A stretch of 64,000 nucleotides of DNA from Glandiceps talaboti. Lineage: Eukaryota > Hemichordata > Enteropneusta > Spengelidae. A model generated the notes under the pieces. The model worked only from the letters and a program-made list of their open reading frames with translations, was not told the DNA's origin and did not search any database. Every line of letters begins with the position of its first letter. Position 1 is the first letter of the stretch. Below, piece by piece: positions 22,855-55,655 of this stretch. The stretch is from positions 6,106,598 through 6,170,597 of the forward strand of contig NC_135560.1 in assembly GCF_964340395.1 (NCBI RefSeq), in the 5' to 3' direction. Both the position numbers and the translations under genes were made by a program.

Positions 22855-24781
22855 ATGGGACAATTCAGGCGATCGGTTTGCAGTCTCTCAACGTTTCTTT
22901 GTAGAAGTAAAGGTAAGGTAATATTCTCAGACGAATAAAGTGTATCCATGGAGACATTTTTGCTAACTCCACGGCGTACAATATTGCGACATGGATGTAT
23001 TAGTCATGGAAGTATCACTCACTTCTAGTAGTGATACATCCAGAGCTCTGGATATATCCATTACCGCGATCATCAGATGGAACGTGTATTTCATTTCACC
23101 GATCATCAAACAATGTTATTTTGAATGTTTGCTACAAAACTGTGTTAATTCAACGACAAGAAATAATATATGCATAACTAAAACTGCTATATGAAAGAAT
23201 AGGGCCTTGGACTATTGTACACTAAACAAATAAATGTGCCTTGTTATGTAATTGGGGCCTAGCTTTTGTTTCCATGAAATGTTTGGGGGTTTTTGTATTT
23301 GGCTAAACACAGTGGTGTTTGGAAATGCTATTTATGTATTTCAAACACCTCGATTTTTCGGGGGAGGGGGAGTATTCACAATACTGTATACACATATTAA
23401 TTTTATACACATTTTAACTTTCTGCGATTTAGTGATGTACAAATACAGACTTGGTCGATGCTGTTTCACATTGTTAGAAAACATTGTCAAATTGTTTCAT
23501 AAATTAAAAAATAGAAAATGTACTGAAATAATTATCATCCATACGTCCTTTTATAAATGTTATCATTTAATATTTCATCTTTTTTATCAATTCTTTTCAG
23601 GAAGAAGAAAATGTTCGTATCCGATCATTTTGACTTGTGTTCTCGTTACAACTTTGTTTATCACATATAGTGCAATTCTTCAACTCAGCGATATCCGAAC
23701 TTCTTCATCTTACGATTCGATTTTATTGAAACGAATCCGCCTAGAAATCGGCCCAGACGTCAACGAAACAACTGATCGTGATCAATTTCATACACTTGGT
23801 GCCGCCGCGCGTTGGCAAGTGGCAGACGGTAAAAATGCAAATCAGAAGAATCGCAGCATATTTCTGAAAGAAGGAAACATGCATAAAATATTGAATCAAG
23901 TTTTTAAGGTATATCAGGACACTTGTTATTGGTTGAACAAGGAAACTAAAATGTGGGGTTTGAGGGAATCGTCTGCGCGGGAACAGAGAGGCTGCGAACA
24001 AAAACTTCCCCAAGTTATCGTTATTGGAGCGAAGAAATGTGGAACGACTGCCCTCACACTGTGGCTGAGTACACATCCAAAAATAGCGGCTGTTACGGCA
24101 GAAAAACACTATTTTGATGACCACCCAAACCATAGCTTGGATTGGTATCGTCGAATTATGCCATTTTCGACGAAAGACCAGATAACCATGGAAACCACAC
24201 CGAAATATTTTGTTTATCCCGATAACACACCAAAGAGAATTTTTACAGAGATTTCACCCAACACAAAAATTATTTTGATTCTGTGTGACCCAGTGAAGAG
24301 GGCGATTTCTGACTACGTCCACGAAGCGGAGCTAAATAAAAGCACTGGATTTTATCGAATTGAAACTACTTTCTGGTCCTCTGTGTTGAATAAGCTCCAT
24401 GTCGTTGACGAGCTCAATGAACTCGTTGATACTGGAATTTATGTGAAACATCTCCGTCGGTGGCTGGAGTACTTTCCAAATCTGTTTGTGGTAGATGGAA
24501 CCAAATTTAAACAATCGAATCCAGCACCGACTCTAACTGACATAGAGAAATTTTTAGATTTACCAAGATTTTTTGAAGAATGGCACTTCTACGTGGATTC
24601 GAAGAAGGGGAACTATTGCGCAAAGACATCTTTCCCAATGCATTGTTTAGGGTCTAACAAAGGCAGAAAACATCCTGAAATAGGGGAAAGCGTCCTGAAA
24701 CAGCTTCGAGAATTTTACAGGCCTTATAATCAACAACTGTCTGAACTTCTTAATCAGACCTTTGAATGGGAGAGCAATTAA
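22855..24781 (+). CDS. Heparan sulfate glucosamine 3-O-sulfotransferase-like (HS3ST family)
   Basis: Two coding exons, 22855-22912 and 23601-24781, join in phase 1 (AAAG|GTAAGG donor, TTTTCAG acceptor) to give 412 residues. This is a Golgi type II enzyme that would transfer sulfate from PAPS to the 3-OH of glucosamine in heparan sulfate. Residues 1-23 are cytosolic and end in RRK; about 24-46 form the signal anchor; the lumenal stem follows. The 5'-phosphosulfate loop is GAKKCGTTAL (162-171). The family's catalytic-base Glu is in AEKHYFD (E187). The 3'-phosphate segment is ILCDPVKRAISDY, with Cys248 where relatives carry Arg (ILRDP). The C-terminal Cys pair and GRKHP segment match the HS3ST substrate-binding end. 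Length fits the family (about 300-460). I cannot assign a subfamily; the Cys248 change may lower or alter activity. Confidence 0.88.
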
Positions 24782-27639: not shown

Positions 27640-28036
27640 ACACTATTCAGCGGACTGTTACACAGTAAATGATTTACCAATTTTGTGGGAAAGATATGAT
27701 TTTAAAGCCAAGACAATACCCTCTGTTTCACGGTGCATTGGTTTGGCTGCATTTTACTATGTTATTCCAACAATATGGCGGCACGCTTAACTTCCGAGAA
27801 AACTTGTATTTCGTTGAATTCAATCGTGTATGTAGTGATCATTGGAACACTCAATCCAATTGGATGAGTAGTAATAGCATTCGCAGTATTATGTGACGTT
27901 GATATATATCAGCCAATCATAATCTAGTTATGATGGGCGTGGAGCTGGAAAATCTCACTAGTTTTTCCCCTTCGTGTTAGTAAACAGAACGGCGTCCATG
28001 TCTTTCTTCAACTCCGGACGACAGTAACGATCGAAG
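27640..28036 (+). promoter_or_regulatory. Promoter and noncoding exon 1 of DED-glycosyltransferase copy 1
   Basis: This block is shared with 41885-42415 and 51955-52477. It starts near GCGGACTGTTACACAGTAAA and contains a CCAAT box followed by TATGATGGGCGTG. It ends in a noncoding exon with donor CGAAG|GTAAGT at 28036. The position matching the kappaB-like site of copies 2 and 3 reads GGAAAATCTC here and does not fit the consensus. Confidence 0.6.
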
Positions 28037-28402
28037 GTAAGTAATGTACTAAAGATAGTTTATGTAGCCGTCGGACCCTTTCTTTCTAATATTCGTGTAA
28101 AACTGCATACATTACTGACTAATATGCAAGAATGTTTTCGCTGTTTTTTTTTCAATGCATAAAAGTACTTCACAAATAACACCACAGATGTAGAACTAGT
28201 AGGACTACCTCCAAGTTCACACTATCCACACAAGTTACAACTTTAAAATACAATCGCAAGCATAAGTTACTATATGTCATGATTGTCTCGGTACTAGGGA
28301 GCTAGGGAGGTTGCTGTCGTCCGGGCTGCTTACTTTGCTAGTAACAGCACACGAAAATACATGCACTTTACATAAATTGGTAGGTGCACGGAAAGCTAGT
28401 AG

Positions 28403-28511
28403 CTCTGGATTTACGCTGCGGGGGTTTCGACACGTCTTCTCCGAACCCCCCCCCCTCTCCCACTCAGTGCCGACCCCCCCCCCACCCCCACCGCAGCGTA
28501 TAAATCCAGAG
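28403..28511. repeat. Foldback element, 109 bp
   Basis: CTCTGGATTTACGCTGCGG at the left end is repeated inverted at the right end, with a 2-base TA insertion. The arms flank a C-rich core. It is probably a small MITE-like insertion in intron 1 of copy 1. Confidence 0.65.
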
Positions 28512-29159
28512 ATAGGAAAGTTTGTATCACAGATCTGTCCTACCTAAAAGCGAAAATGGAGTTAGGGGTTATAATTTACTTCTGTTTTCCTTTCCAAGGG
28601 TCCCTCTACTTTAAGTTTGACCCAAGTCTTATGAGGTACTTGTACTTTTTAAATGTACACCTCCCTGTACAGAAAAAGTTGCTAGCTGGTGACTTACAAG
28701 CTTTTTTCAATTTCAGTAAAACTGTTGCATGTACTATATCAAAATCGTGATAAAATGGAGGGGTCACCTTTATACTGAACCGTACAATTTCGTTAGGACC
28801 TGGATAATTTAGTACACACCTTGATGTAAATGTTTGAGGGAGACTCTTTGACCAGTATATGTTTTCTGGTGTTTTCACAGTATTACACGACCGTGGACCT
28901 GTGATTAAGGCACTGGAGAGACTCTCTTCTCTAACGTCTGTTTAAACCTAAACCCGCCCTCTCTGACACTCATTTAAGAATGCATGTAGTCCCGACAGAA
29001 GCAACCACGGAAACACCGATTCTATTGTTGACGCATATAAGTAATATCACACAGTGACACACTCCAGGGTCCAAGATATCACCTTGGGCAAAATGCCACT
29101 CAGGAACTTTTATATATATTTCGTTTCTGAAAATCATCGCAACTTTAGGTCGTATTAAC

Positions 29160-29194
29160 CTCAGACTACTAAACTGTCTTTTTAGTAGTCTGAG
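29160..29194. repeat. Perfect 14-bp-stem hairpin
   Basis: CTCAGACTACTAAA and its exact reverse complement are separated by a 7-nt loop, within intron 1 of copy 1. The downstream arm follows a short T-run. No function assigned. Confidence 0.7.
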
Positions 29195-30439
29195 TTTTGA
29201 GGGATGAAATTCGTGTACAGTTTATAGTACATAAATTATATCACAACTCGAATTCACTATTGATTACCTTGGGTACTAAATGTGAAAAAAGTCCAGGTCA
29301 GGTCAGATTTCTGATGCGTTGCGACCTTTATACAACACTCGCCATAATAACTTGCTGTATTCGAACACAATGAACTCTTCTGAAGATAATAAAATACGAT
29401 ATCAGCATTGCGCAAGCTCACAACAGGTAACCAGTGTTTAAAATCAACAGAAGCTCCCGTCAGTATTCTAGTAAGCCATACATTGTACAACAGCATAGGA
29501 ATATACTGTATGCCTATCAACAAGATGTTTACTATTTTATACGAAGCTATTGATTGTTGTCGACTAGCTGTTACGACCAATTTAGAATACTAGTAGTTAG
29601 ATTACGAACCGTTCTAGAGTGTGAAGTCATGTTTCTCCTGGCGGTTTCCCAGATCTTGCCAGCCCTTTCTTCTAACAAAAATTCTACTTTTAAAACAAAT
29701 GTCACGTTAAGTCATTTATTTAAATTATGCAAGTTAATCATTTAATTTTTGCGGTGTTAGGATTATTGCAGAATACATCCTGGTCGTAGTATTCAATGAT
29801 TTATCACAAGTTCATCTGACCTCACCTAACCCTTTCTTGTAATATTTTATCGTCTACCATTATTTTTATACCAACATTTACCAACTGTTACATTTTCTGT
29901 GCACGAGGTACCATCATGTTAGGAGTTCGTCGTCAAATGATATAAAGTCTAGCAATTTAAACTTTTTCATGTGTGTTTAATTGGCGGTAATCTGCTAAGG
30001 TAACTCACTCAAAGAAAATCACTGTACAAGTTCACCGGACAATGAAATGTAGCAGTATTAGTAATGTTTGATTTTGATCGAAGTTCTTTTTCAGGTTAAC
30101 TGGTTTTTATAAGCACAGCTAAACACTGAGGTAGTTCAGTAGTGCTATATGCTTGGTAAAATGTGTGTATGTGTTCGTTTGTGTGTTTGTGTGTCTCTGT
30201 ATGTGCGTGTCTGTACCTGTGTATGTAAACAAGTTAAAGTAAAAAATCATTGGTTTTTGTTGGTAATATTACTTAGGGTGTGTCGATGGAAAATTGTTCA
30301 AATGTGACAATGATCGCACTACTAGTGTGTGATGTGGGTAAAAAAAATGGGATCCTTAGCAAAACAAAAACTCACAAAACTCAAAAAACGTATGGGCAGA
30401 ATGGTATCTTTACGATGAAAGATGAATGACTGTTTACGA

Positions 30440-31110
30440 CATGGTGATCCCATCAGTGATATGCAAATTGGGTCTACAACATGACTTTTTGGTCAAAACT
30501 ATTTAATTCCACAACTACTGGACAGATTGGGCTGAACTGTGGTGGGAATGTTTCTAGGAATGTGTAGATGAAGATTTGTGTGCTCTAATAGGTGATATGC
30601 AAATTATATCTAAAATGTGAATTTTGATCAAAAAGTTATACCTCAGAGGAGGCTGAATTTGGTGGGAATATTTCTAGAGATGTCAATCCACAGATGGTCA
30701 TGACATATTGCCTCAACTAGCCCTAGGAACCAGGACCGCACCCTTAGTGACAGCCAAATGGTAGTATATTTTGCAAAGATAGCATTATTTGGTAGGCAAA
30801 TGAAGAAATATTCAAAAATGTATGTAAATATGCCCAGACCACGCCCAAAACAACAGGCAAGTGGTGCGTATTATCCAAAGATAACAGCAGGAATGGATAG
30901 GCAATTGAATAAACATTCCAAAAGTGAATGTATATATGCCTAGCAACAACACCACGCCCACAGCAACAGTCTAATGATGGTGTATATTGCAAGAAGACAA
31001 CGGGGCTGAGAAGGCACATGGATGAACATCCCAAACATGACTACTTATATGCCTAGCAACAAGACCACGCCCGTAGCAACAGCCAAATGGGGGTGTATAT
31101 TGCTTACAAT
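30440..31110. repeat. Two adjacent diverged tandem arrays
   Basis: Two ~130-bp units starting GTGATATGCAAATT lie at about 30458 and 30591. They are followed by about 3.3 units of 104-114 bp built around TATATGCCTAGCAACAxxACCACGCCC, beginning near 30753, 30857, 30971 and 31083. All are intronic. Confidence 0.6.
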
Positions 31111-31418
31111 TGGGCGGCTAGCCAAGTGGTTAACATTACACATTGTAACACGTACGCATATTAACGAAGTCTTAAAAGACCCCAGCAAAAGTCAAATACA
31201 ATGTACCAGTTGCTAAGATACCAACAACGGTAAAACATTCAAATAATAACACAATGTGCAACCATTGGGCAAATATAACAACAGGGACAGGTATGAATAA
31301 ACTTGCCAAGGCAGAATCAATGTCTTACCCAAACCAATGTTCTACAGTTGTGCTTTACGCAATTGGTGCTATTTTTGTATTTATTTTTACAGGTTGATAA
31401 TCACCTTGAGGGTTTAGA

Positions 31419-34400
31419 ATGGATGGATTACGGATTCTTTATCAATATTTAAATGACAACATTTCGATACCTGAAGAAAAAAAAATACGAAATATAGTGA
31501 AAGGCACAAAAATCCCTGTGCGTGATCTGGACGCGCTAGAAGACCTGACAGATATTTTTGGATGTTTAGAAGAAAGAGGATACATAGGACTAATTGATCT
31601 TGGGTATCTGAAGGATATTCTCGGGCTAATAAGTCGACCACGTCTTATTGAAAAAGTGGAGGAATTCGAAAGAAAGCAGAAATTATCAGGTTAAACTAAA
31701 ATTCCATTTGTCGATACACAATGTATTTAAAACTAATTTAAATGTATCCCTGGATGTTCTTATGGACATTTTAATGTGTTCGTTCGGTTTTTATTTGTTT
31801 ATTTTTTGTTTGTTTATTTATCATTATGTTTTGGTTTGGTTTGGTTTGCTTTCTATGAGGAGGCAGATTTACAGTGTTACTTGAAAACAATTTGAAATCT
31901 GTCAGAGGGTTTAGTTTATCACTGTGTAACATCTATAATATTGATCTATTCAATGCAAGGGTATAAGATAAGATTGATTTTCATCAAATGAAGTTGCTAC
32001 CCTGGCATCAATTTGTGCAAAAATGAATATGAAACTAGTGAAAATTTCATTTTACGAGATCACAATCTTTGGATGCAAGTCACCTTTTGCCTTTCGGTAT
32101 TTCCCTCTTTTTTCTTTTCTTTTTTGCAAAGACTTGTAATGTGGTGTTTTTCTTCTTTGTTTACAACGAAAATTAAAAAAAATATATATATATATAACAA
32201 AAAAAAACGTGCACCGAACCTGGTTTGCCAAAGAACCGAAAAGACAATTGAATATTTAAACTATGACTATATAGGTACACATCGACCGGTAGTCATGTAA
32301 TTCTGCATTATCTCAATGGTAACAACAGAGATTCAAAGGATAAAGTCGTCTTTTTGTATATAAAAAAACAAACAGATTTTTTTTCATATATTCAGTCATA
32401 CAATTGTTTCCTTTCTATAAATTACTACTAAAATTGCTGTTACAGAACATGCACCACGTGACAGTGGAACGCTAAGGGGAGGAAACACGCAAAGCGGCGC
32501 TAGCGGTAAGTGGGTTTTTTTTCTCTTTTTTTTTGTTATGAGACTGTGAAATGTAATAAATTAAGAAAGAAGTTATGTAATGCTTTATACACCCAATAAA
32601 ACTCTTAAAATACAAAAAAGTACAAGCGGTAAGTATATCATATAACCTTTAGTTTGCACAGCATTTATTTATTCTTTCCAAAGGAAGATGAAAGTTACAG
32701 AATTGAATATTTAAGATCATGTTAGTTAATACCCACCTGGAATTCCATAATTACACATGTTGGAGCCATGGTTTAACCATAGACCCTACACGGTCTATGG
32801 TTTAACCATTGAATGGTTTGAAAAGGCTTTCACAATTTCCCTACTCTGAATTCATACCTTGTTGTTTCCATGGAAATTTGATCGTCCGTTTCTCCATTAC
32901 GAAAGCGTTGTATTCATCGGAACGTACTTAGTATATTGAAAGTACAAATTGACTTATCGGGTTCCCTGTCATCGCAGATTCAACAGATACTCCAAAATGA
33001 TAAAGAGTACCTGTCATAAATTTGATTTGATGAAATTTTTGAAATTACGGTTACAGGGTATACAGGGTCTGGCAACTACACTGGACAAGGGCTTACCGTC
33101 ACGGCGAACCCTAGTGGAACAAACACACAACCCGAACAGAGTACATGCGGTAAGCATATCCCCAAACGCACTGTTTGCACGGTGCCGGGAGGGGGGGGGG
33201 ACCCATGCGTCCTTGTAAACAGTGGAGAAGAACTCAGATTTTAACTTAAACTATGCTAGATGAAAAGTTTTACGTGAAAGGTATAGTCCTTCTTAAACAC
33301 AGAGCAGTGAAAAGACCTCTTTTGCGTAGACTTTTCACGTCTTTCCCGTCTACGGACAAGACACAGTACGGCAGACTAAGTTAGTTGACAGCAACGATAT
33401 AAATGTAACATTTTATATCCGTATCGCTATCGTATCATTTCTGGGAACAGCTATGCCACCTCCGACCACTGCAATTGCAATTTTTACTCTAGTTGTCTCA
33501 GCTCAATGAATCATGACTATGAATACCATCATGTCATTCATGAAATAACCAAAATATCCACCTCCGACCACGGCAATGGCAATTTTTACTCTAGCGGTAT
33601 CAGCTCAATGAATCATGACTATGAATACCTTCATGTTATTTCGTGAAATTATCCACTTCAGAACAACCCCTTGTATCCGAAGTCTAAATTTGACGACACT
33701 CTAATTCTCAGATAATTTTCTCTATGTATACAGATTCTAGTGATGCCACGGGTATTGATGACACTGATAGCGCAAGGTATGGCTTCATAAATTAAACTAC
33801 ACTGTCGTAAACTACAGCCTCTTTTACGGCACCGTCCAAGACGCACCGCCATTTTGCAGTATCACAGAAGAAGTAACAGCTCTGGTTTGCGATAATGATT
33901 AAACTATTGCCGTATGACATGTATTACTTAAACTTGAATTTTACTAATTAGTGTTTTGCAATCTTGAGGCATTTTGAATCCATTTCTAAATTTAAATGAT
34001 GATATTTGTTGGCTGTCAATACTTGGTCACGTGTTATGAATAATGAGTGCATACTCAAGTATACCGTCAGAATCAATCAATCGTTTATTCAGTATTGTTG
34101 GCCACCGGCCAAAAAAATACAAACCTTAAATATACAAAAATGAACGGATCACCAGAAAATATCAAAATTATCAGGCCCTTTGAGTCTCAGAGTTTCTAAT
34201 AGTATCTTTTCTAAGTTTAGTAGCATAAAATATATATCTACTAAGTTTTCTGAGTGTCAACCTTTCGAGACGACAGAAGTAATACAAATTTGTGTTGCAG
34301 TGGGAGATTATAAAAGTAATTGGCAATATATTTTGACCTTATACAAGTATAAAAAGGACATACAAGTAAAAAGTGGAATTCATCCTCTACTTGATTTACA

Positions 34401-36134
34401 TTACACATTTCACAAAGTCTCTCTACTCTTAAAGTATCATTCCAACGACCAGTTTCGATTTTCAAATTATTTTATGCGATTTTCAAATTATGTGTTGAGG
34501 TTCTAAATCTACAAAGCATCAGTTTGAATATTGGTTTATCAAGAGAGGTTAACGTCAGAAATTGCAGGTAACAATGTGCAATGTTGTGTTTGGAACAACT
34601 GTCTCACCATGATACAATGGTTTACCAAAATAGGCGAATTTTAAATTTAAATCAATGCACTTGTCGTTAATTACGTTTTATTTGTACATCATAGTTCAAT
34701 GTGATAAGTTATATATACTCAGGAATCAATGGTTTGTCTGCTTGGATGCAGATTTGGTGGTATTTATTCTAACGTTTTCTTGGAAAGTTTCCAAATCTAG
34801 GGGTTTAGCTAGTTATAATGACAGAACATGATTTTGAATAAATTGACATGTTGCCCATTTTTTTCAATTTCAGATTCAAAAATGGAACAAAAAAGAGTGT
34901 TCTGTTGGTGAATGATGAATGGGGTACGTCAAAGGGAGGAATATCGACAGTTCATCGTCAACTGGCCGAACAAGCTAAAGATGCTGGGTTCGATGTTTAT
35001 GTCACAGCACTAGAACTGAATGAAGAGGATGCCAAAGATGCCAATGAAAAGGGGATCAATGTGATAACCGCGAGGAAGAAAGGATACACACCTCCAGATT
35101 TGACTTGGATTAACACCACTCATCGGACGTATTTCCCCAAATTAGAAGAAGAAATACCAAATTTGAGCGTCATCGTTGGTCACATACCAATCACATCAGA
35201 GGGGGCTCTAGACATTCGAAAAGAACGCTTTGCAGGGAAAGGTGTAAAGGTTTTCCTGTTTAATCATGTCATTCCAGAAGATATCGAAGAGTGGAAGTCA
35301 GGATCGACCCCAGAAACAACTGACGAGAAAGAAAACCGTATCCTGGAACAGGTCAAGGAAGCTGACGCTGTATTCTCAGTTGGTCCAAGGATGTTCAACC
35401 ATTTCGACAACAACTTCCGTGCCCTTCCCGAAGTTGTGCACTTTCTTTACATCCCATTGCCCGACAAACCGTTTTTTGACATTTCCATCAAACCACCAAG
35501 CGAAAATAATCCTGTCATCAAGGTGTTGGCATTAGGTCGAGTTGATGGTGTTGGAAAGTTGAAAGGTTACGATGTCATGGCAGCTGCCATGAGCAGAGTC
35601 TGTGACTTGTACCACAACGCAGGTTTGGGACAGCCCCCAATATTGGTCATTAGAGGCATCCCAGAAGGAAAACACGAACAAAGTCAGGAATTCATCAAGA
35701 AACATGTAAAGTCGAAATATTTGAAGATAACCCTTCGTCCTTATGGAACACAGGACCAAATAAGGCAGGATATGAAAACAAGTCACCTTTTCGTCATGCC
35801 GTCCCGTAGTGAGCCATTTGGAATGGTTGGAATAGAAGCCATCGCTGCAGGTCTACCAACCCTGTTGACCACCAACTCTGGTTTAGCAGAATTGGTTGTT
35901 AAACGAGATATCTTCGGATCACGTGATGGAAAATCCATGGTTGTTGATGTTGGTCTTAACGATGCTGACTTGGAAGATGATATCAAGATTTGGGAAGAAC
36001 ACATCAAAAGTGTGCTGCTGAGAGATGAGTACGAAGAAAATTTTAAACACGCCCAAGATTTGAAACAGCGCCTGAAGAAACTACCGGCAATCAAGAAAAC
36101 ACATGAGGATTTCGTCAAAGAGCTTGTAAAATAA
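31419..36134 (+). CDS. DED-glycosyltransferase (GT4) fusion protein, copy 1
   Basis: Coding exons 31419-31689, 32446-32505, 33057-33149, 33734-33776 and 34874-36134 join with consistent phases (1,1,1,2) into 575 residues. In-frame stops precede the ATG, which has A at -3 and G at +4; the exon's acceptor is at 31393. Residues 1-90 form a death-effector domain: the stretch EDLTDIFGCLEERGYIGLID, then LISRPRLIEKVEEFE, aligns with FADD/caspase-8 DEDs. The usual RxDL motif reads RPRL. Residues about 91-156 are a Gly/Ser/Thr/Asn- then Asp/Ser-rich linker. Residues 160-575 are a two-lobed GT-B enzyme of family GT4: WGTSKGGIST (172-181), LGRVDGVGKLKG (Arg378, Lys384/386) and the EX7E pair Glu469/Glu477 in EPFGMVGIE. 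No signal peptide or membrane segment is seen, so it is probably cytosolic. Donor and acceptor sugars are unknown. A signalling role via DED contacts is inferred. Confidence 0.82.
32768..32809. repeat. Inverted repeat, 18-bp arms
   Basis: ATGGTTTAACCATAGACC and its near-exact reverse complement (one mismatch) flank a 6-nt spacer in an intron of copy 1. The arms are themselves partly palindromic (GGTTTAACC). Confidence 0.65.
33805..33900 (+). repeat. ~95-bp dispersed element, copy 2
   Basis: Same element as 22005-22099 and 57171-57264. Here it lies in the intron just before the GT exon of copy 1. Confidence 0.65.
34075..34515 (-). mobile_element. 5'-truncated LINE fragment (CR1/jockey-like RT C-terminus)
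   Basis: On the minus strand an open frame of about 74 codons reads RLCEMCNVNQVEDEFHFLLV, then CPFY. This is the characteristic C-terminal segment of many non-LTR reverse transcriptase proteins. It is followed by a 3' tail with GATTGATTG-type repeats. It sits in the last intron of copy 1 and is absent at the same place in copies 2 and 3. Confidence 0.75.
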
Positions 36135-38512: not shown

Positions 38513-39036
38513 CTATGCACACAGTGAGAATGACCATTTTACGAAAAAATACCAATATTCCTAATTCTGTTTTCTAAAATGTGACCCTGCCTTTCTCTGA
38601 AACATGACCCCCCCCCCCCCCATTGAATGTTTGTTAAACATTGCGCTAATATGCTGTCAGACGTAAAAAGTAACACAATTTTCAGAACCAGCCATAAAGA
38701 CGAACGACTCTATCCCACCACATTGATAATTTTAAAGACACTGGTTGTTTCCAACTACTACCTCATAGTGAAATGTGTGAAGACACTGCAATAATAATTT
38801 CCTGTGTTTGGATCTAATTCTAGTAATTGCGCATAGCTCTAGGCCAGAATCCCCAAAGACTAAAATGGGTACACAACAGACATTGTCAGGACTAAGTTCA
38901 ACATCCCAACTCCACCACATTATCACAAATATCTTTCCACACTGTTCGACCTTCACTCATGTTAGACCCACGCCTCTCTTGATGCCACAACTAACAAGTG
39001 ATTCAGTGAATGGTTGTAAGCAGCGATTTGCCTGAA

Positions 39037-39322
39037 ATGTTCTGATATTACAGTACAACGGTGGCAGTGGTGGGATTGACTGATATGTTCTGATATTGGA
39101 GTACAGTGGTGGCAGTGGTGGGATTGACTGATATGTTCTGATATTGGAGTACAGTGGTGGCAGTGGTGGGATTGACTGATATGTTCTGATATTACAGTAC
39201 AACGGTGGCAGTGGTGGGATTGACTGATATGTTCTGATATTGGAGTACAGTGGTGGCAGTGATGGGATTGACTGATATGTTCTGATATTACAGTACAATG
39301 GTGGCAGGGCAGTGGTTGGATC
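39037..39322. repeat. 48-bp minisatellite, ~6 copies
   Basis: Consensus unit starts ATGTTCTGATATT and includes AGTGGTGGCAGTGGTGGGAT. The period is a multiple of 3, which produces an artefactual Tyr/Pro-rich open frame on the minus strand. Confidence 0.9.
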
Positions 39323-42415: not shown

Positions 42416-43680
42416 GTGAGTAATATACTACCGATATAACCGTCAAAGCTTTCTGTCAAATGTTAACACTATTGTCACCATGTCTAGAACGTTTCTCAGT
42501 GTTTTATAAACGTATATAGCATTTCACGACTCAAACTATGTGACACTATTCGGAACCTCACATCTCAGACCACTGTTACAGAAATTATAATTTTAAGGGT
42601 TTAAGAGCACATTGTATGATAATGAATACCATCATGTCATTCCTTGAAATAACCAAAATATATATCTTCACATCTCAGACCACTGTAAAATAGCAATTTT
42701 ACAATGGTGGTTTGACATCAAGCTAAATCACGTCTTTGAATGCCCTCACGATGTTTACCTTGGAAATTACACCCACAGAGGGAGTAGTGTGGTAGAATTG
42801 ACTTTTCAGCTCATTGCAGCTCAACCACAGTCCCGACGACAGCCTTACATCACAGCGCCCAGCTTGAAGAGTCTAATTGTCAGATTATTTGTTCTATGTA
42901 TGCAGATACTGATGATAACATGGCTTCTGACAACACTGCTGGTGCAAGGTAAGGCTTTACAAATAAATATCAGGTGTTACTTAAACTTGAACTTTACTTT
43001 AAAAGCTGCACTATCTGCAACCGGAAAGTTTTATTATGAAACTGTTTTGTTAGATAGAATACCTTACTCGTAATATCATACACCCTGTACACAGTACAGT
43101 ATTAAATCACCTGTGGGGATGCATATCTGTAGCTGAATGCATAAATATGCTCCAATAAATTTTCCGCACCCAAAAATCAGCGCCCTCTTGCAATCATAAT
43201 TCCAACCTACTACTTTATTACTTATGGATAACTTGACTTCTAATTGACATGTACAGTGTCTAATTATTGGTATTTTAGGAATTGTCGGTGAAATATTGGA
43301 AAAATAATCCCTAGTTACCGCTAGATTTAAAAGGCAATATATTTTTACTACAGTATGCTATTGTTAGTACCTGTGACTACCTTGATAAAATGAAACGATA
43401 TGTGTAACATAATAATTGTAAGAATTAACACAAAATACCGGATCGATCATCTACAATCTTGTCGCATCTTCAAAACATTTGTAAATTAATGTTGCGATTT
43501 CTTTCTGTCACTACCTTACTTGATATGAATTTAATAGTTGACTTTTGACCCCTGTGAAAGTAGTATATACTACATTACGAATAAACTGTCATTCATTGGA
43601 ATGGTGGAAATAATGAAATATTGATCAAAATCCGCGAATTGGTATTAGTTGTCTTTTCGATGGACTGTTTTATGTCAGCA

Positions 43681-43736
43681 GAACCAGGGACCTTTAGATC
43701 TTCAGTCTAATGCTCTCCCAACTGAGCTATTTCGGC
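43681..43736 (-). pseudogene. 3'-truncated tRNA-Phe(GAA)
   Basis: On the minus strand the first 56 nt of a tRNA-Phe are present: GCCGAAA acceptor strand, D arm (TAGCTCAGTTGGGAGAGC), anticodon loop CTGAAGA with GAA, variable loop and the start of the T arm to GGTTC. The rest of the T arm and the 3' acceptor strand are replaced by unrelated sequence, so it is not functional. It lies in the intron of copy 2, with a twin in copy 3. Confidence 0.85.
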
Positions 43737-44160: not shown

Positions 44161-45908
44161 AGAGTTCATATCAAATGCTCTTATCATAGTTCAATATAAT
44201 AAGTTATACTCAGGAATCAATGGTTTGTCTGCTTGGATGCAGATTTGGTGGTATTTATTCTAACGTTTTCTTGGAAAGTTTCCAAATCTGGAGGTTTAGC
44301 TAGTTATAATGACAGAACATGATTGAATAAATTGCCATGTTGCTAATTTTTCAATTTCAGATTCAAAATTGGAACAAAAAAGAGTGTTCTCTTGGTGAAT
44401 GATGAATGGGGTACGTCAAAGGGAGGAATATCGACAGTTCATCGTCAACTGGCCCAACAAGCTAAAGATGCTGGGTTCGATGTTTATGTCACAGCACTAG
44501 AACTGAGTGAAGAGGATGCCAAAGATGCCAATGAAAAGGGGATCAATGTGATAACCGCGAGGAAGAAAGGACGTTCCTCGCCGAATTTGACTTGGATTAA
44601 CACCATCTGGCTTATTTCCCCAAATTAGAAGAAGAAATACCAGATTTGAGCGTCATCGTTGGTCACATACCAATCACGTCAGAGGGGGCTCTAGACATTC
44701 GGAAGGAACGCTTTGCAGGGAAAGGTGTAAAGGTTTTCCTGTTTAATCATGTGATTCCAGAAGATATCGAAGAGTGGAAGTCTGGTACGACCCCAGAAAC
44801 AACTGAAGAGAAAGAAAAACGTATCTTGGAACAGGTCAAGGAAGCTGATGCTGTATTCTCAGTTGGTCCAAGGATGCTCCACCATTTCGACAACAACTTC
44901 CGTGTCTTTGTCGACAGAAAGATGATACACAAACTGTACATCCCATATCCCGACAAACAGTTTTTCGACATCTCCATCAACCCACCAAACAAAGATAATC
45001 CTGTCATCAAGGTGTTGGCATTAGATCGAGTTGATGGTGTTGGAAAGTTGAAAGGTCATGATGTCATGGCAGCTGCCATGAGCAAAGTCTGCAACTTGTA
45101 TCACGATGCAAAGTTAGGACACCCCCCAATATTGGTCATTAGAGGCATCCCAGAAGGAAAAGACAAAGAAAGTATGGAATTTATGAAGAAACATGTAAAG
45201 TCGAAATATTTGAAGATAACACCTCGTCCTTATGGAACACAGGACCAAATAAGGCAGGATATGCAAACAAGTCACCTTTTCGTCATGCCGTCCCGTAGTG
45301 AGCCATTTGGAATGGTTGGAATAGAAGCCATCGCTGCAGGTCTACCAACCCTGTTGACCACCAACTCAGGTTTAGCAGAATTGGTTGTTAAACGAGATAT
45401 CTTCGGATCACGTGATGGCAAATCCATGGTTGTTGATGTTGGTCTTAACGATGCTGACTTGGAAGATGATATCAAGATTTGGGAAAAGCATATCAAAAGT
45501 GTGCTGCTGAGAGATGAGTACGAAGAAAATTTTAAACACGCCCAAGATTTGAAACAGCGCCTGAAGAAACTACCGGCAATCAAGAAAACACATGAGGATT
45601 TCGTCAAAGAGCTTGCAAAATAACATTGAGCAGAAGAAATACCAAATACACTTACAAGTCAAATATCATAAAGAGAGATACCTCTGACATGTATTTACAA
45701 GTTTGGTAGTTACTGTATTGTAAAAACCATCAATGATGACAGATGCATCTCCAACTGCAAGTGATGTCACATACACAATTATGCATAACAATTTGACAGC
45801 TTTCAAGTTGAAGTGACAGCATGCAGCTTATCAGATCAATAGTTTAATGACAACCGTATTGACGCCAAGCAACCCTCGTTCTTCGTTATTACTTGCACAG
45901 GTAAATGA

Positions 45909-47998: not shown

Positions 47999-48540
47999 CT
48001 ATGCACACAGTGAGAAGTGCTGTTTTACGAAAGAATTCCATTATTCCTAATTTTGTTTTCTAAAACGTGATCCTCCCTCAACTTGGCCTCAAGTACCTTA
48101 CTCTCAAACATGAACCCCCCCCCCCCATTGAATCTTTGTTAAACATTGGGCTGATATGCTGTCCGACGTAAAACGGAGCACAATTCTCAGAACCAACCGT
48201 AAAGACGAACGACTCTATCCCACCACATTGATAATTTTAAAGACACTGATTATTTCCAACTATTATACCTCATAGTGAAATGTGTGAAGACACTGCAATA
48301 ATTATTTCCTGTGTTTGGATCTAATTCTAGTAATTGCTTAGCTGTAGGCCAGAATCCCCAAAGACTAAATGGGTACACTACAGACATTGTCGGGACTTAG
48401 TTCAACATCCCAACTCCACCACATTATCACAAATATCTTTCCACACTGTTCGACCTTCACTCATGTTAGACCCACACCTCTCTTGATGCCACTACTAACA
48501 CGTGATTCATTGAATGATTGTCAACAGCGATTTGCCTGAA

Positions 48541-49489
48541 ATGTTCTGATATTACAGTACAACAGTGGCAGTGGTGGGATTGACTGACATGTTCTGATAT
48601 TGGAGTACAGTGGTAGCAGTGGTGGGATTGACTGATATGTCCTGATATTACAGTACAGTGGTGACAGTGGTGGGATTGACTGATATGTCCTGATATTACA
48701 GTACAGTGGTGGCAGTGGTGGGATTGACTGATATGTCCTGATATTACAGTACAGTGGTGGCAGTGGTGGGATTGACTGACATGTTCTGATATTGGAGTAC
48801 AGTGGTAGCAGTGGTGGGATTGACTGATATGTCCTGATATTACAGTACAGTGGTGGCAGTGGTGGGATTGACTGATATGTTCTGATATTACAGTACAGTG
48901 GTGGCAGTGGTTGGATTGACTGATATGTCCTGATGTTACAGTACAATGGTGGCAGGTGGGATTAACTAATATGTTCTGATATTGGGGTACAGTGATGGCA
49001 GTGGTGGGATTGACTGATATGTTCTGATATTGGGGTACAGTGATGGCAGTGGTGGGATTGACTGATATGTTCTGATATTGGGGTACAGTGATGGCAGTGG
49101 TGGGATTGACTGATATGTTCTGATATTGGGGTACAGTGGTGGCAGTGGTGGGATTGACTGATATGTTCTGATATTACAGTACAGTGGTGGCAGTGGTGGG
49201 ATTGACTGATATGTCCTGATATTGGGGTACAGTGATGGCAGTGGTGGGATTGACTGATATGTTCTGATATTACAGTACAGTGGTGGCAGTGGTGGGATTG
49301 ACTGATATGTTCTGATATTACTGTACAGTGGTGGCAGTGGTGGGATTGACTGATATGTCCTGATGTTACAGTACAATGGTGGCAGGGGGGATTAACTAAT
49401 ATGTTCTGATATTGGGGTACAGTGATGGCAGTGGTGGGATTGACTGGTATGTTTTGATATTACAGTACAATGGTGGCAGTGGTGGGATC
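48541..49489. repeat. 48-bp minisatellite, ~20 copies
   Basis: Same unit as 39037-39322, with variants TATTACAGTACAG, TATTGGAGTACAG and TATTGGGGTACAGTGATGG interspersed. The long minus-strand open frames are produced by the 16-codon period. Confidence 0.92.
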
Positions 49490-52477: not shown

Positions 52478-52981
52478 GTGAGTAATATACTAGCGATATA
52501 ACCGTCAAAGCTTTCTGTCAAATGTTAAGACTATTGTCACCATGTCTAGAACGTTTTTCAGTCTTTTATAAACGTATATAGCATTTCACGACTCAAACTA
52601 TGTGACACTATCCGGAACCTCACATCTCAGACCACTGTTACAGAAATTATAATTTTAATGGTTTAAGAGCACATTGAATGATAATGAATACCATCATGTC
52701 ATTCCTTGAAATAACCAAAATATATATCTTCACATCTCAGACCACTGTAAAATAGCAATTTTACAATGGTGGTTTGACATCAAGCTAAATCACGTCTTTG
52801 AATGCCCTCACGATGTTTACCTTGGAAATTACACCCACAGAGGGAGTAGTGTGGTAGAATTGACTTTTCAGCTCATTGCCGCTCAACCATAGTTCCGACG
52901 ACAGCCTTACATCACAGCGCCCAGCTTGAAGAGTCTAATTGTCAGATTATTTGTTCTATGTATGCAGATACTGATGATAAC

Positions 52982-55655
52982 ATGGCTTCTGACAACACTG
53001 CTGGTGCAAGGTAAGGCTTTACAAATTAATATCGGGTGTTAATTAAACTTGAACTTTACTTTAAAAGCTGCACTACCTGCAACCGGAAAGTTTTATTATG
53101 AAACTGTTTTGTTAGATATAATACCTTACTCGTAATATCATACACCCTGTACACAGTACAGTATTGAATCACCTGTGGGGATGCATATTTGTAGCTGAAT
53201 ACATAAATATGCTCCAATAAATTTTCCACACCCAAAAATCAGCGCCCTCTTGCAATCATAATTCCAACCTACTACTATACTACTTATGGATAACTTGACA
53301 TCTAATTGACATGTACAATATCTAATTATTGGTATTTTAGGAATTGTCGGTGAAATATTGGAAAAATAATCCCCAGTTACAGCTAGATTTAAAAGACAAT
53401 ATATTTTTACTATAGTATGCTATTGTTATTACCTGTGACTACCTTGATAAAATGAAACGATATGTGTAACAATTAATAATTGTAAGAATTAAGACAAAAT
53501 ACAGAATCTTGTCGCATCTTCAAAACATTTCTAAATTCATGTTAAAATTTCTTTCTGTCACTACCTTAGTTGATATGAATGTAATTGTTGACTTTTGACC
53601 CCTGTGAAAGTAGTATATACTACATTACGAATAAACTGTCATTCATTGGAATGGTGGAAATAATGAAATATTGATCAAAATCCGCGAATTGGTATTAGTT
53701 GTCTCTTCGATGGACTGTTTTATGTCCGCAGAACCAGGGACCTTTAGATCTTCAGTCTAATGCTCTCCCAACTGAGCTATTTCGGCTGATAATCAACACA
53801 GCAGAACATATGCAATTACTTTTGAAGTAATTGTATATTTTAAACAAGTCCACAGTCCTATGTGGAATACCTTTTGATAAGAGCCGTTGGGTTAATAAAG
53901 TTAGATAACCTGGCCACCTGTTGGAATTGCAAACTTTTAACAAGTTTGAAATATGACACGATGACAACATCTTGACACTGCGCGCATGACTGGAGCTATT
54001 GTCGTCTGCATGGATTCTGACGACAGACAATTTTGTGAAATGACATCAAAACAAATTATAACTACTAATTATTAATAACAATCATAATTACGACAGATTT
54101 CTTTTAAAAAATATCAATCAATCAATCAATCAATCAAACAATTTATATAGCGCCTGAATCCATTACTCAGAATGTTCAAAGGCACTAGTCTAAAAGAGTT
54201 CATATCAAATGCTCTTATCATAGTTCAATATAATAAGTTATACTCAGGAATCAATGGTTTGTCTGCTTGGATGCAGATTTGGTGGTATTTATTCTAACGT
54301 TTTCTTGGAAAGTTTCCAAATCTGGAGGTTTAGCTAGTTATAATGACAGAACATGATTGAATAAATTGACATGTTGCTCATTTTTCAATTTCAGATTCAA
54401 AATTGGAACAAAAAAGAGTGTTCTGTTGGTGAATGATGAATGGGGTACGTCAAAGGGAGGAATATCGACAGTTCATCGTCAACTGGCCCAACAAGCTAAA
54501 GATGCTGGGTTCGATGTTTATGTCACAGCACTAGAACTGAATGAAGAGGATGCCAAAGATGCCAATGAAAAGGGGATCAATGTGATAACCGCGAGGAAGA
54601 AAGGATACACACCTCCAGATTTGACTTGGATTAACACCACTCATCGGACGTATTTCCCCAAATTAGAAGAAGAAATACCAAATTTGAGCGTCATCGTTGG
54701 TTACATACCAATCACGTCAGAGGGGGCTCTAGACATTCGGAAGGAATGCTTTGCAGGGAAAGGTGTCAAGGTTTTCCTGTTTAATCATGTGATTCCAGAA
54801 GATATCGAAGAGTGGAAGTCAGGATCGACCCCAAAAACAACTGAAGAGAAAGAAAACCGTATCCTGGAACAGGTTAAGGAAGCTGATGCTGTATTCTCAG
54901 TTGGTCCAAGGATGTTCAACCATTTCGACAACAACTTCCGTGTCTTTGTCGACAGAGTGATACACAAGCTGTACATCCCATATCCCGACAAACAGTTTTT
55001 CGACATTTCCATCAACCCACCAAATAAAGACAATCCTGTCATCAAGGTGTTGACATTAGGTCGAGTTGATGGCGTTGGGCACCTGAAAGGTTACGATGTC
55101 ATGGCAGCTGCCATGAGCAGAGTCTGCGACTTGTATCACAAAGCAAACTTAGGACAACCCCCAATATTGGTCATTAGAGGCATCCCAGAAGGAAAAGAGA
55201 AAGAAAGTATGGAATTCATCAAGAAACATGTAGAGTCGAAATATTTGAAGGTAATACCTCTTCCTTATGGAACACAGGACCAAATAAGGCAAGATATGCA
55301 AACAAGTCACCTTTTCGTCATGCCGTCTCGTAGTGAGCCATTTGGAATGGTTGGAATAGAAGCCATCGCTGCAGGTCTACCAACCCTGTTGACCATCAAC
55401 TCTGGTTTGGCAGAATTGGTTGTTCAACCAGATATCTTCGGATCACGTGATGGAAAATTCATGGTTGTCGATGTTGGTCTTAATGACGTTCATTTGGCAG
55501 ACGACATCAAGATTTGGGAAAAGCATATCATACGTGTGCTGAGAGATGATTACCAGGGCAACTTTGAACATGCCCGAAAATTGAAAGAACGCCTGAAGAA
55601 ACTACCGGCTATCAAGGAAACACACGAGGATTTCGTCAAGGAGCTGGCAAAATAA
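52982..55655 (+). CDS. GT4 glycosyltransferase without DED, copy 3 (intact)
   Basis: The coding part of exon 52968-53010 joins GT exon 54395-55655 in phase 2, giving 429 residues starting MASDNTAGAR. The ATG has A at -3 and G at +4 but is the second in the message; an overlapping upstream ATG two codons earlier is out of frame. All GT4 landmarks are present: WGTSKGGIST, LGRVDGVGHLKG and EPFGMVGIE with the EX7E glutamates. The GT exon is exactly as long as in copy 1 (1261 nt). The exon carrying the start is the counterpart of copy 1's last linker exon, so DED and most of the linker are lost. No secretion signal is seen, so it is probably a cytosolic enzyme. Substrates are unknown. Confidence 0.78.
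53731..53786 (-). pseudogene. 3'-truncated tRNA-Phe(GAA), second copy
   Basis: Same 56-nt tRNA-Phe remnant as 43681-43736, carried along in the duplicated intron. Confidence 0.85.

What the first reader, a model, noticed from the sequence alone, without database searches (positions are those of the whole stretch)
31419..36134. A death-effector domain fused to a GT4 glycosyltransferase
Seen: five coding exons with fully consistent phases link a DED (residues 1-90) through a small-residue linker to a complete GT-B/GT4 enzyme with EX7E and nucleotide-sugar-loop motifs. Known: DEDs normally recruit other DED proteins (FADD, caspase-8) in death and immune signalling; GT4 enzymes transfer sugars. 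I recall glycosyltransferase domains joined to NLR-type immune proteins in some invertebrates, but a direct DED-GT4 protein is not a standard architecture. Inferred: DED assembly could concentrate or switch on a glycosyltransferase effector, modifying host or microbial targets.
Basis: partly seen in the sequence, partly recalled or inferred. Interest (0 to 1): 0.92.

Follow-up and report, generated by a model that had tools for sequence, protein, structure and literature searches.

The report
Death-effector domain fused to glycosyltransferase
A marine-invertebrate gene appears to join a protein-clustering domain of cell-death and immune signalling to a sugar-transferring enzyme of a family linked to immune conflict, which suggests that immune sensors could switch on sugar-tagging of invaders or host targets.

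Summary
Five exons (31419-36134) join in phase into 575 aa: DED (PF01335, 37.4 bits, cut-off 35.9), linker, complete GT4 (PF20706 GT4-conflict, 249.5 bits). No transcript was available. A paralogue on another contig repeats the layout with the same intron phases. Of 107 GT4 loci in the scored lists, 6 have a DED hit within 5 kb, all 5' on the same strand; Death, NACHT and CARD hits lie within 15 kb of none. DED hits also lie 5' of 40 of 80 NACHT hits. Two tandem GT4 copies in the window keep the 5' flank, exon 4 and GT exon but lack the DED segment; the nearest GT4 relatives have a COR domain upstream at 5 loci. Best reading: the DED recruits a GT4 effector to DED assemblies, perhaps seeded by DED-NACHT proteins. 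Against it: 3 of 5 DED-linked GT4s examined depart from EX7E, though the window's does not. Metazoan GT4 conflict effectors are already in print, so this is a variant of a known kind. Binding, activity and immune role are inferred.

The parts
27647..28036 (+). putative promoter and first non-coding exon of the DED-GT4 gene (GT donor at 28037)
   Evidence: 27647-27900 and 27878-27954 align collinearly to sequence 5' of both tandem copies; exon status inferred, no RNA
31419..31689 (+). coding exon 1: ATG and death effector domain, ends in phase 1
   Evidence: PF01335 37.4 bits; paralogues to 43% identity; phase
32446..32505 (+). coding exon 2: linker, phase 1-1
   Evidence: AG/GT borders and open frame
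33057..33149 (+). coding exon 3: linker, phase 1-1; a second in-frame AG nine bases downstream could also serve
   Evidence: AG/GT borders and open frame; second AG read
33734..33776 (+). coding exon 4: linker, phase 1-2
   Evidence: borders; homologous exon at both tandem copies; same-phase exon in the C26 paralogue
34874..36134 (+). coding exon 5: complete GT4 (GT4-conflict) domain and stop
   Evidence: PF20706 249.5 bits; EX7E present
42906..42948 (+). tandem copy 2, exon-4 homologue with an in-frame ATG
   Evidence: 76% identity over 96 bases around it; position, ATG read
44361..45623 (+). tandem copy 2, GT4 exon; reading frame broken near 44604
   Evidence: tblastn in two frames, 91% and 88% identity; no DED found upstream
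52968..53010 (+). tandem copy 3, exon-4 homologue with an in-frame ATG
   Evidence: 77% identity over 96 bases around it; position, ATG read
54395..55655 (+). tandem copy 3, open GT4 exon with no DED exon found
   Evidence: 87-88% identical; open frame; dN/dS 0.39 against copy 1

Best explanation
A host gene encodes a DED-linker-GT4 protein. Shown on sequence: both domains, compatible exon phases, recurrence of the layout, intact catalytic motifs in this copy. Inferred: the DED lets the protein join DED assemblies. The likeliest nucleators are the genome's many genes with DED exons 5' of NACHT exons (NLR-like; LRRs not tested), whose DEDs are relatives of this one. Clustering at an activated sensor concentrates the GT4, which transfers a sugar to invader molecules or nearby host proteins and so neutralises or marks them. 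It would be a two-protein counterpart of the single-chain NACHT-glycosyltransferase proteins reported in corals.
For: Domains; phases; C26 paralogue with the same phases and a 590-aa open model. DED 5' of GT4, same strand, within 5 kb at 6 of 107 scored GT4 loci, 0 in the three other arrangements; within 15 kb 10 pairs 5' same strand, 1 pair 3' same strand (a DED of the neighbouring C15 gene), 0 on opposite strands; rotation mean 0.13. Death and NACHT hits 0 within 15 kb of a GT4, CARD 0. DED 5' of 40 of 80 NACHT hits within 5 kb, 0 in other arrangements. The window DED's first and third best paralogues lie about 4 kb 5' of NACHT hits on C17. DED exons of five NACHT-linked genes read by eye end in phase 1 as this one does; three of the five are near-identical C17 tandem genes. 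EX7E intact here and in 24 of the 30 best GT4 matches, this one included; dN/dS 0.39 between copies 1 and 3. Literature: metazoan GT4 as conflict effectors (PMC8195603, passages); coral NACHT with glycosyl transferase (PMC5013795, PMC4083563, passages).
Against: No RNA, activity or interaction data. Of five DED-linked GT4s examined only two (window, C26) keep EX7E exactly: C18 (L038) has lost it, and both C15 genes have D for the first E (sequence). The DED reads RPRL where RxDL is expected (motif recalled). 101 of 107 scored GT4 loci have no DED hit within 5 kb, and the window's own sister copies lack the segment. DEDs with neither NACHT nor GT4 within 8 kb match the window DED almost as well as the NACHT-linked ones. 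No NACHT hit lies in the window.
Confidence: 0.45

Rival explanations
1. The DED-GT4 protein is real, but the enzyme works in ordinary glycan or lipid metabolism and the DED merely localises it; no immune role.
For: GT4 is a broad family; 14 bacterial matches resemble it mainly around the EX7E segment; no expression data link it to infection.
Against: Its best family model is the conflict family PF20706. It belongs to a large set (101 scored hits) with local duplication and gain or loss of the DED, a pattern common in immune genes (general knowledge).
Confidence: 0.2
2. Two neighbouring genes: a DED-only protein ending just after 31689, and a separate GT4 gene.
For: The first donor is weak and reading on gives a stop at once; at C26 reading on past the DED exon also gives a stop within a few codons; copies 2 and 3 look like GT-only genes.
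Against: Compatible phases through three short linker exons; the same phases at C26; all 6 close pairs in one orientation.
Confidence: 0.1
3. The GT4 part serves as a decoy or scaffold rather than an enzyme: an invader acts on it or binds it and the DED signals onward.
For: 3 of 5 DED-linked GT4s examined depart from EX7E; 6 of the 30 best GT4 matches lack it; decoy domains in immune receptors are known in plants (recalled).
Against: The window protein and the C26 paralogue keep the catalytic residues examined.
Confidence: 0.2

Closest known systems
Metazoan GT4 conflict effectors (Pfam PF20706; Kaur et al. 2021, PMC8195603, passages only)
   Same: GT4 conflict family; multi-copy; joined to death and immune signalling modules; proposed to modify invader molecules.
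   Different: The passages describe GT4 before TRADD-N with LRRs after; here a lone DED precedes GT4 and the stop follows it. Their Figure 6A and source data were not seen, so a DED-GT4 drawing there cannot be excluded.
Coral NACHT-glycosyl transferase group 1 proteins (Hamada et al. 2013 not read; reported in PMC4083563 and PMC5013795, passages)
   Same: A glycosyltransferase coupled to an NLR-type immune system; tandem expansion.
   Different: There both domains are in one chain; here no scored NACHT hit lies within 15 kb of any of 107 GT4 loci.
FADD and caspase-8 DED proteins
   Same: DED by profile; weak similarity to caspase-8 (E 0.011) and FADD (E 0.22).
   Different: The attached domain is a glycosyltransferase, not a protease or adaptor.
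Bacterial AP-GTPase-COR proteins with GT4 in the effector position (PMC8195603, passages)
   Same: The closest GT4 relatives here (C20, 57-62% identity) have a COR-B hit 3.5-5.7 kb upstream, same strand, at 5 loci, some near-identical.
   Different: The window gene has a DED in that place; the C20 gene models were not worked out.

Membership tests
GT4-conflict (PF20706) | score above curated cut-off over the full profile | tested here: met
   249.5 bits against 26, profile 1-374 of 385
GT4-conflict (PF20706) | GT4 catalytic EX7E and sugar-nucleotide loop residues (recalled as typical) | tested here: met
   E306, E314, G214, R215, K223, G224, G14, G15 invariant in 13 aligned members
GT4-conflict (PF20706) | glycosyltransferase activity | not testable with these tools
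   needs protein
Death effector domain (PF01335) | score above curated cut-off | tested here: met
   37.4 against 35.9, a narrow margin; 44 other genomic matches, best E 6e-13
Death effector domain (PF01335) | six-helix fold | not testable with these tools
Death effector domain (PF01335) | RxDL charge motif (recalled, not strictly defining) | tested here: not met
   reads RPRL; the C17 NACHT-linked DEDs read RPPL
NLR (NACHT) receptor | NACHT NTPase in the protein | tested here: not met
   none in the two large exons scanned; no scored NACHT hit within 15 kb of a GT4 locus
GT4-TRADD-N protein | TRADD-N after the GT4 | tested here: not met
   the stop follows the GT domain; the genome-wide PF09034 search found nothing anywhere and is uninformative

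The most novel reading that the evidence does not exclude
A split, mix-and-match immune system: DED-NACHT sensors and DED-GT4 effectors are separate proteins carrying related DED exons that end in the same phase, so an activated sensor could seed a DED filament that recruits and activates a sugar-transferring weapon. The GT4 is re-wired in evolution by swapping its regulator (DED, COR) or dropping it, as the DED-less tandem copies beside this gene show.
Probability: 0.28. Interest if true: 0.8.

Novelty: new variant of a known kind. Interest (0 to 1): 0.55.

Why it matters
If DED assembly controls a glycosyltransferase, sugar transfer becomes an output of death-fold signalling beside proteolysis. 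The locus also offers a natural experiment: one DED-GT4 gene beside two GT4 copies that lack the DED segment but keep matching flanks.

Tried and rejected
Chance adjacency of DED and GT4: rejected by orientation and rotation. DED exons upstream of the two tandem copies: sought with tblastn at E 10 and with a DED profile made from this genome over the window in six frames, open frames of 30 aa or more; one clear DED found, plus one match at E 0.98 that I set aside. A close bacterial donor: the one scan of bacterial and archaeal genomes gave 14 loci, best 51.6 bits, mostly over the EX7E region; inconclusive. Solved structures: none for the GT at E 0.001; weak caspase-8 and FADD matches for the DED. 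DED tree: GT4-linked DEDs fall in two groups, but four of six are partial exons and I read no support values, so I draw nothing firm. GT4 tree (32 sequences, midpoint root): the window gene groups with the COR-linked C20 genes and L018 (0.998); the five DED-linked loci included (of six) do not form one clade; one gain with losses and several gains both remain possible.

Limits of the counts: lists of scored hits only. DED 150 of 211 candidates, GT protein 101 of 157, GT4-conflict 57 of 155, Death 148 matches, 150 of 199 scored, NACHT 80 matches, 107 of 113 scored, COR-B 20 matches of 26 scored, CARD 26 matches of 37 scored. From I dropped one fragment (C13:6150980-6151204, part of copy 2) and added 7 loci seen only, giving 107; these include near-identical pairs. 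For the DED tree I dropped L068 (stop inside) and L006, L007 (same places as L070, L072). Domains separated by long introns would be missed.

I also added the C15 departures from EX7E, and for that reason lowered the main confidence from 0.5 to 0.45, raised the decoy rival from 0.15 to 0.2 and lowered the novel case from 0.3 to 0.28.

Full report
Observation. Exon 1 is a DED (PF01335, 37.4 bits, cut-off 35.9) and exon 5 a complete GT4, best matched by PF20706 GT4-conflict (249.5 bits). The Pfam margin of the DED is small, but the exon matches 44 other places of the same genome at E <= 3.3e-4, 43 of them from aa 1-7 onward, best 43% identity. Catalytic residues of the GT4 are intact. No RNA was available, so splicing is inferred.

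Setting. The window lies in a 590 Mb genome of 47 contigs. Its mitochondrial COX1 stretch has 13 TGA codons read as Trp and no AAA, AGA or AGG, and lies between frames that I recognise, from memory, as ND2 and COX2. By recalled knowledge this suggests an enteropneust hemichordate; I hold that at about 0.6.

The layout recurs. At C26:6660837-6664255 a paralogue has a DED exon, two linker exons and a GT4 exon with the same exit phases (1, 1, 2) and a 590-aa open model; GT identity to the window is 45%, DED identity 40%. The window gene has one linker exon more. At C15 (two genes) and C18, DED exons ending in phase 1 lie directly upstream of GT4 exons that can be entered in phase 1, read by eye (domains; the C18 DED scores 35.8, just under the cut-off). 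At C20:20058060 a DED lies 4.5 kb upstream, junction not read. In all, 6 of 107 scored GT4 loci have a DED hit within 5 kb, all upstream on the same strand; within 15 kb there are 10 such pairs, 1 downstream on the same strand and 0 on the opposite strand. Rotating the GT4 positions 300 times gave a mean of 0.13 and a maximum of 2. Death and NACHT hits gave 0 within 15 kb, CARD 0.

The tandem copies. Two further GT4 exons lie at 44361-45623 (frame broken near 44604) and 54395-55655 (open), 87-91% identical piecewise. Homology to gene 1 is collinear: 27647-27954, then 33457-33795 (with exon 4; from 33513 in copy 2), then parts of 33918-34041, then 34688 onward. The segment from about 27955 to 33456, which carries the DED and two linker exons, corresponds to only about 240-300 bases in copies 2 and 3. 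The exon-4 homologue there has an in-frame ATG, so GT-only proteins are plausible. The DED segment was thus lost from, or gained at, one locus inside otherwise matching flanks.

Partners and relatives. DED hits lie 5' of NACHT hits, same strand, within 5 kb at 40 of 80 NACHT loci, 0 in other arrangements. DED exons of five NACHT-linked genes (three of them near-identical) end in phase 1 like those of the GT4 genes (donors picked by eye). The window DED's best matches include C17 NACHT-linked DEDs, but DEDs with neither NACHT nor GT4 within 8 kb match nearly as well. The GT4 genes nearest to the window's (C20, 57-62% identity) have a COR-B hit upstream at 5 loci within 10 kb and a sixth, beside a broken GT4, at 15 kb, all same strand; at L042 COR-B passes its cut-off and COR-A does not. 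In the GT4 tree they group with the window gene and L018 at 0.998.

Enzyme state. EX7E is kept in 24 of the 30 best GT4 matches; the six without it are L033-L038. Among five DED-linked GT4s examined, the window and C26 keep it, C18 (L038) has lost it, and the two C15 genes have D for the first E. So sugar transfer is likely for the window protein but may not be general to the layout.

Mechanism. Most likely the DED recruits the enzyme to DED assemblies, perhaps seeded by DED-NACHT proteins, raising local glycosyltransferase activity on invader or host targets. Shown: domains, phases, recurrence, motifs, presence of DED-NACHT gene pairs. Inferred: binding, activation, substrate, immune role. 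A DED-only product by retention of the first intron is possible, because a stop follows at once, both here and at C26; it could act as a competitor (inference).

What is known. Kaur et al. 2021 (PMC8195603; passages) describe metazoan GT4 domains as conflict effectors with TRADD-N and other partners, over 500 in a coral, and GT4-TRADD-N in cephalochordates, hemichordates and cnidarians. Coral NACHT-glycosyl transferase proteins are reported in PMC5013795 and PMC4083563 (passages); PMC13133943 (outline and passages) mentions these and a NACHT-DED combination in Hydra; coral glycosyltransferase expansions are in PMC6214176, PMC10236652 and PMC12314368 (passages). PMC7159879 (passages) mentions glycosyltransferases in bacterial conflict systems. 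In the listings and passages of my searches I saw no text on a DED-GT4 protein without NACHT or TRADD-N; most listed papers were not opened, and figures and supplements were not seen, so priority is open.

Verdict. Gene model confirmed by sequence, new variant of a known kind, mechanism plausible and untested.

Noticed in passing
C20:3409342-6693953 (L042, hits): GT4 genes closest to the window's have COR-B hits upstream, so a COR(ROCO)-GT4 architecture may exist in this animal, like the bacterial Roc-COR-GT4 proteins in print.
   Followed up: partly
L033-L038 (C4, C10, C5, C18): A divergent set of GT4 genes lacks the EX7E glutamates and may be pseudo-enzymes; one of them (L038) is DED-linked.
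   Followed up: partly
C15:11436853-11635384: Two DED-GT4 genes lie about 62 kb from a cluster of NACHT hits with DED hits upstream.
   Followed up: no
window 48532-49488 and 39028-39307: 48-base tandem repeat arrays, 20 and about 6 copies, inside the duplicated unit; copy number differs between the tandem units.
   Followed up: no
window 23252-24778: Open frame with a sulfotransferase domain (PF00685, 67.9 bits) upstream of the DED-GT4 gene.
   Followed up: no
window 43677-43736 and 53727-53786, minus strand: tRNA-like sequences at matching places of both tandem copies (Rfam RF00005, 32.4 and 32.9 bits; ARAGORN found none).
   Followed up: no
L042, sense positions 1-738: A long open frame of repeats of about 21 residues upstream of the COR-linked GT4 gene.
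   Followed up: no
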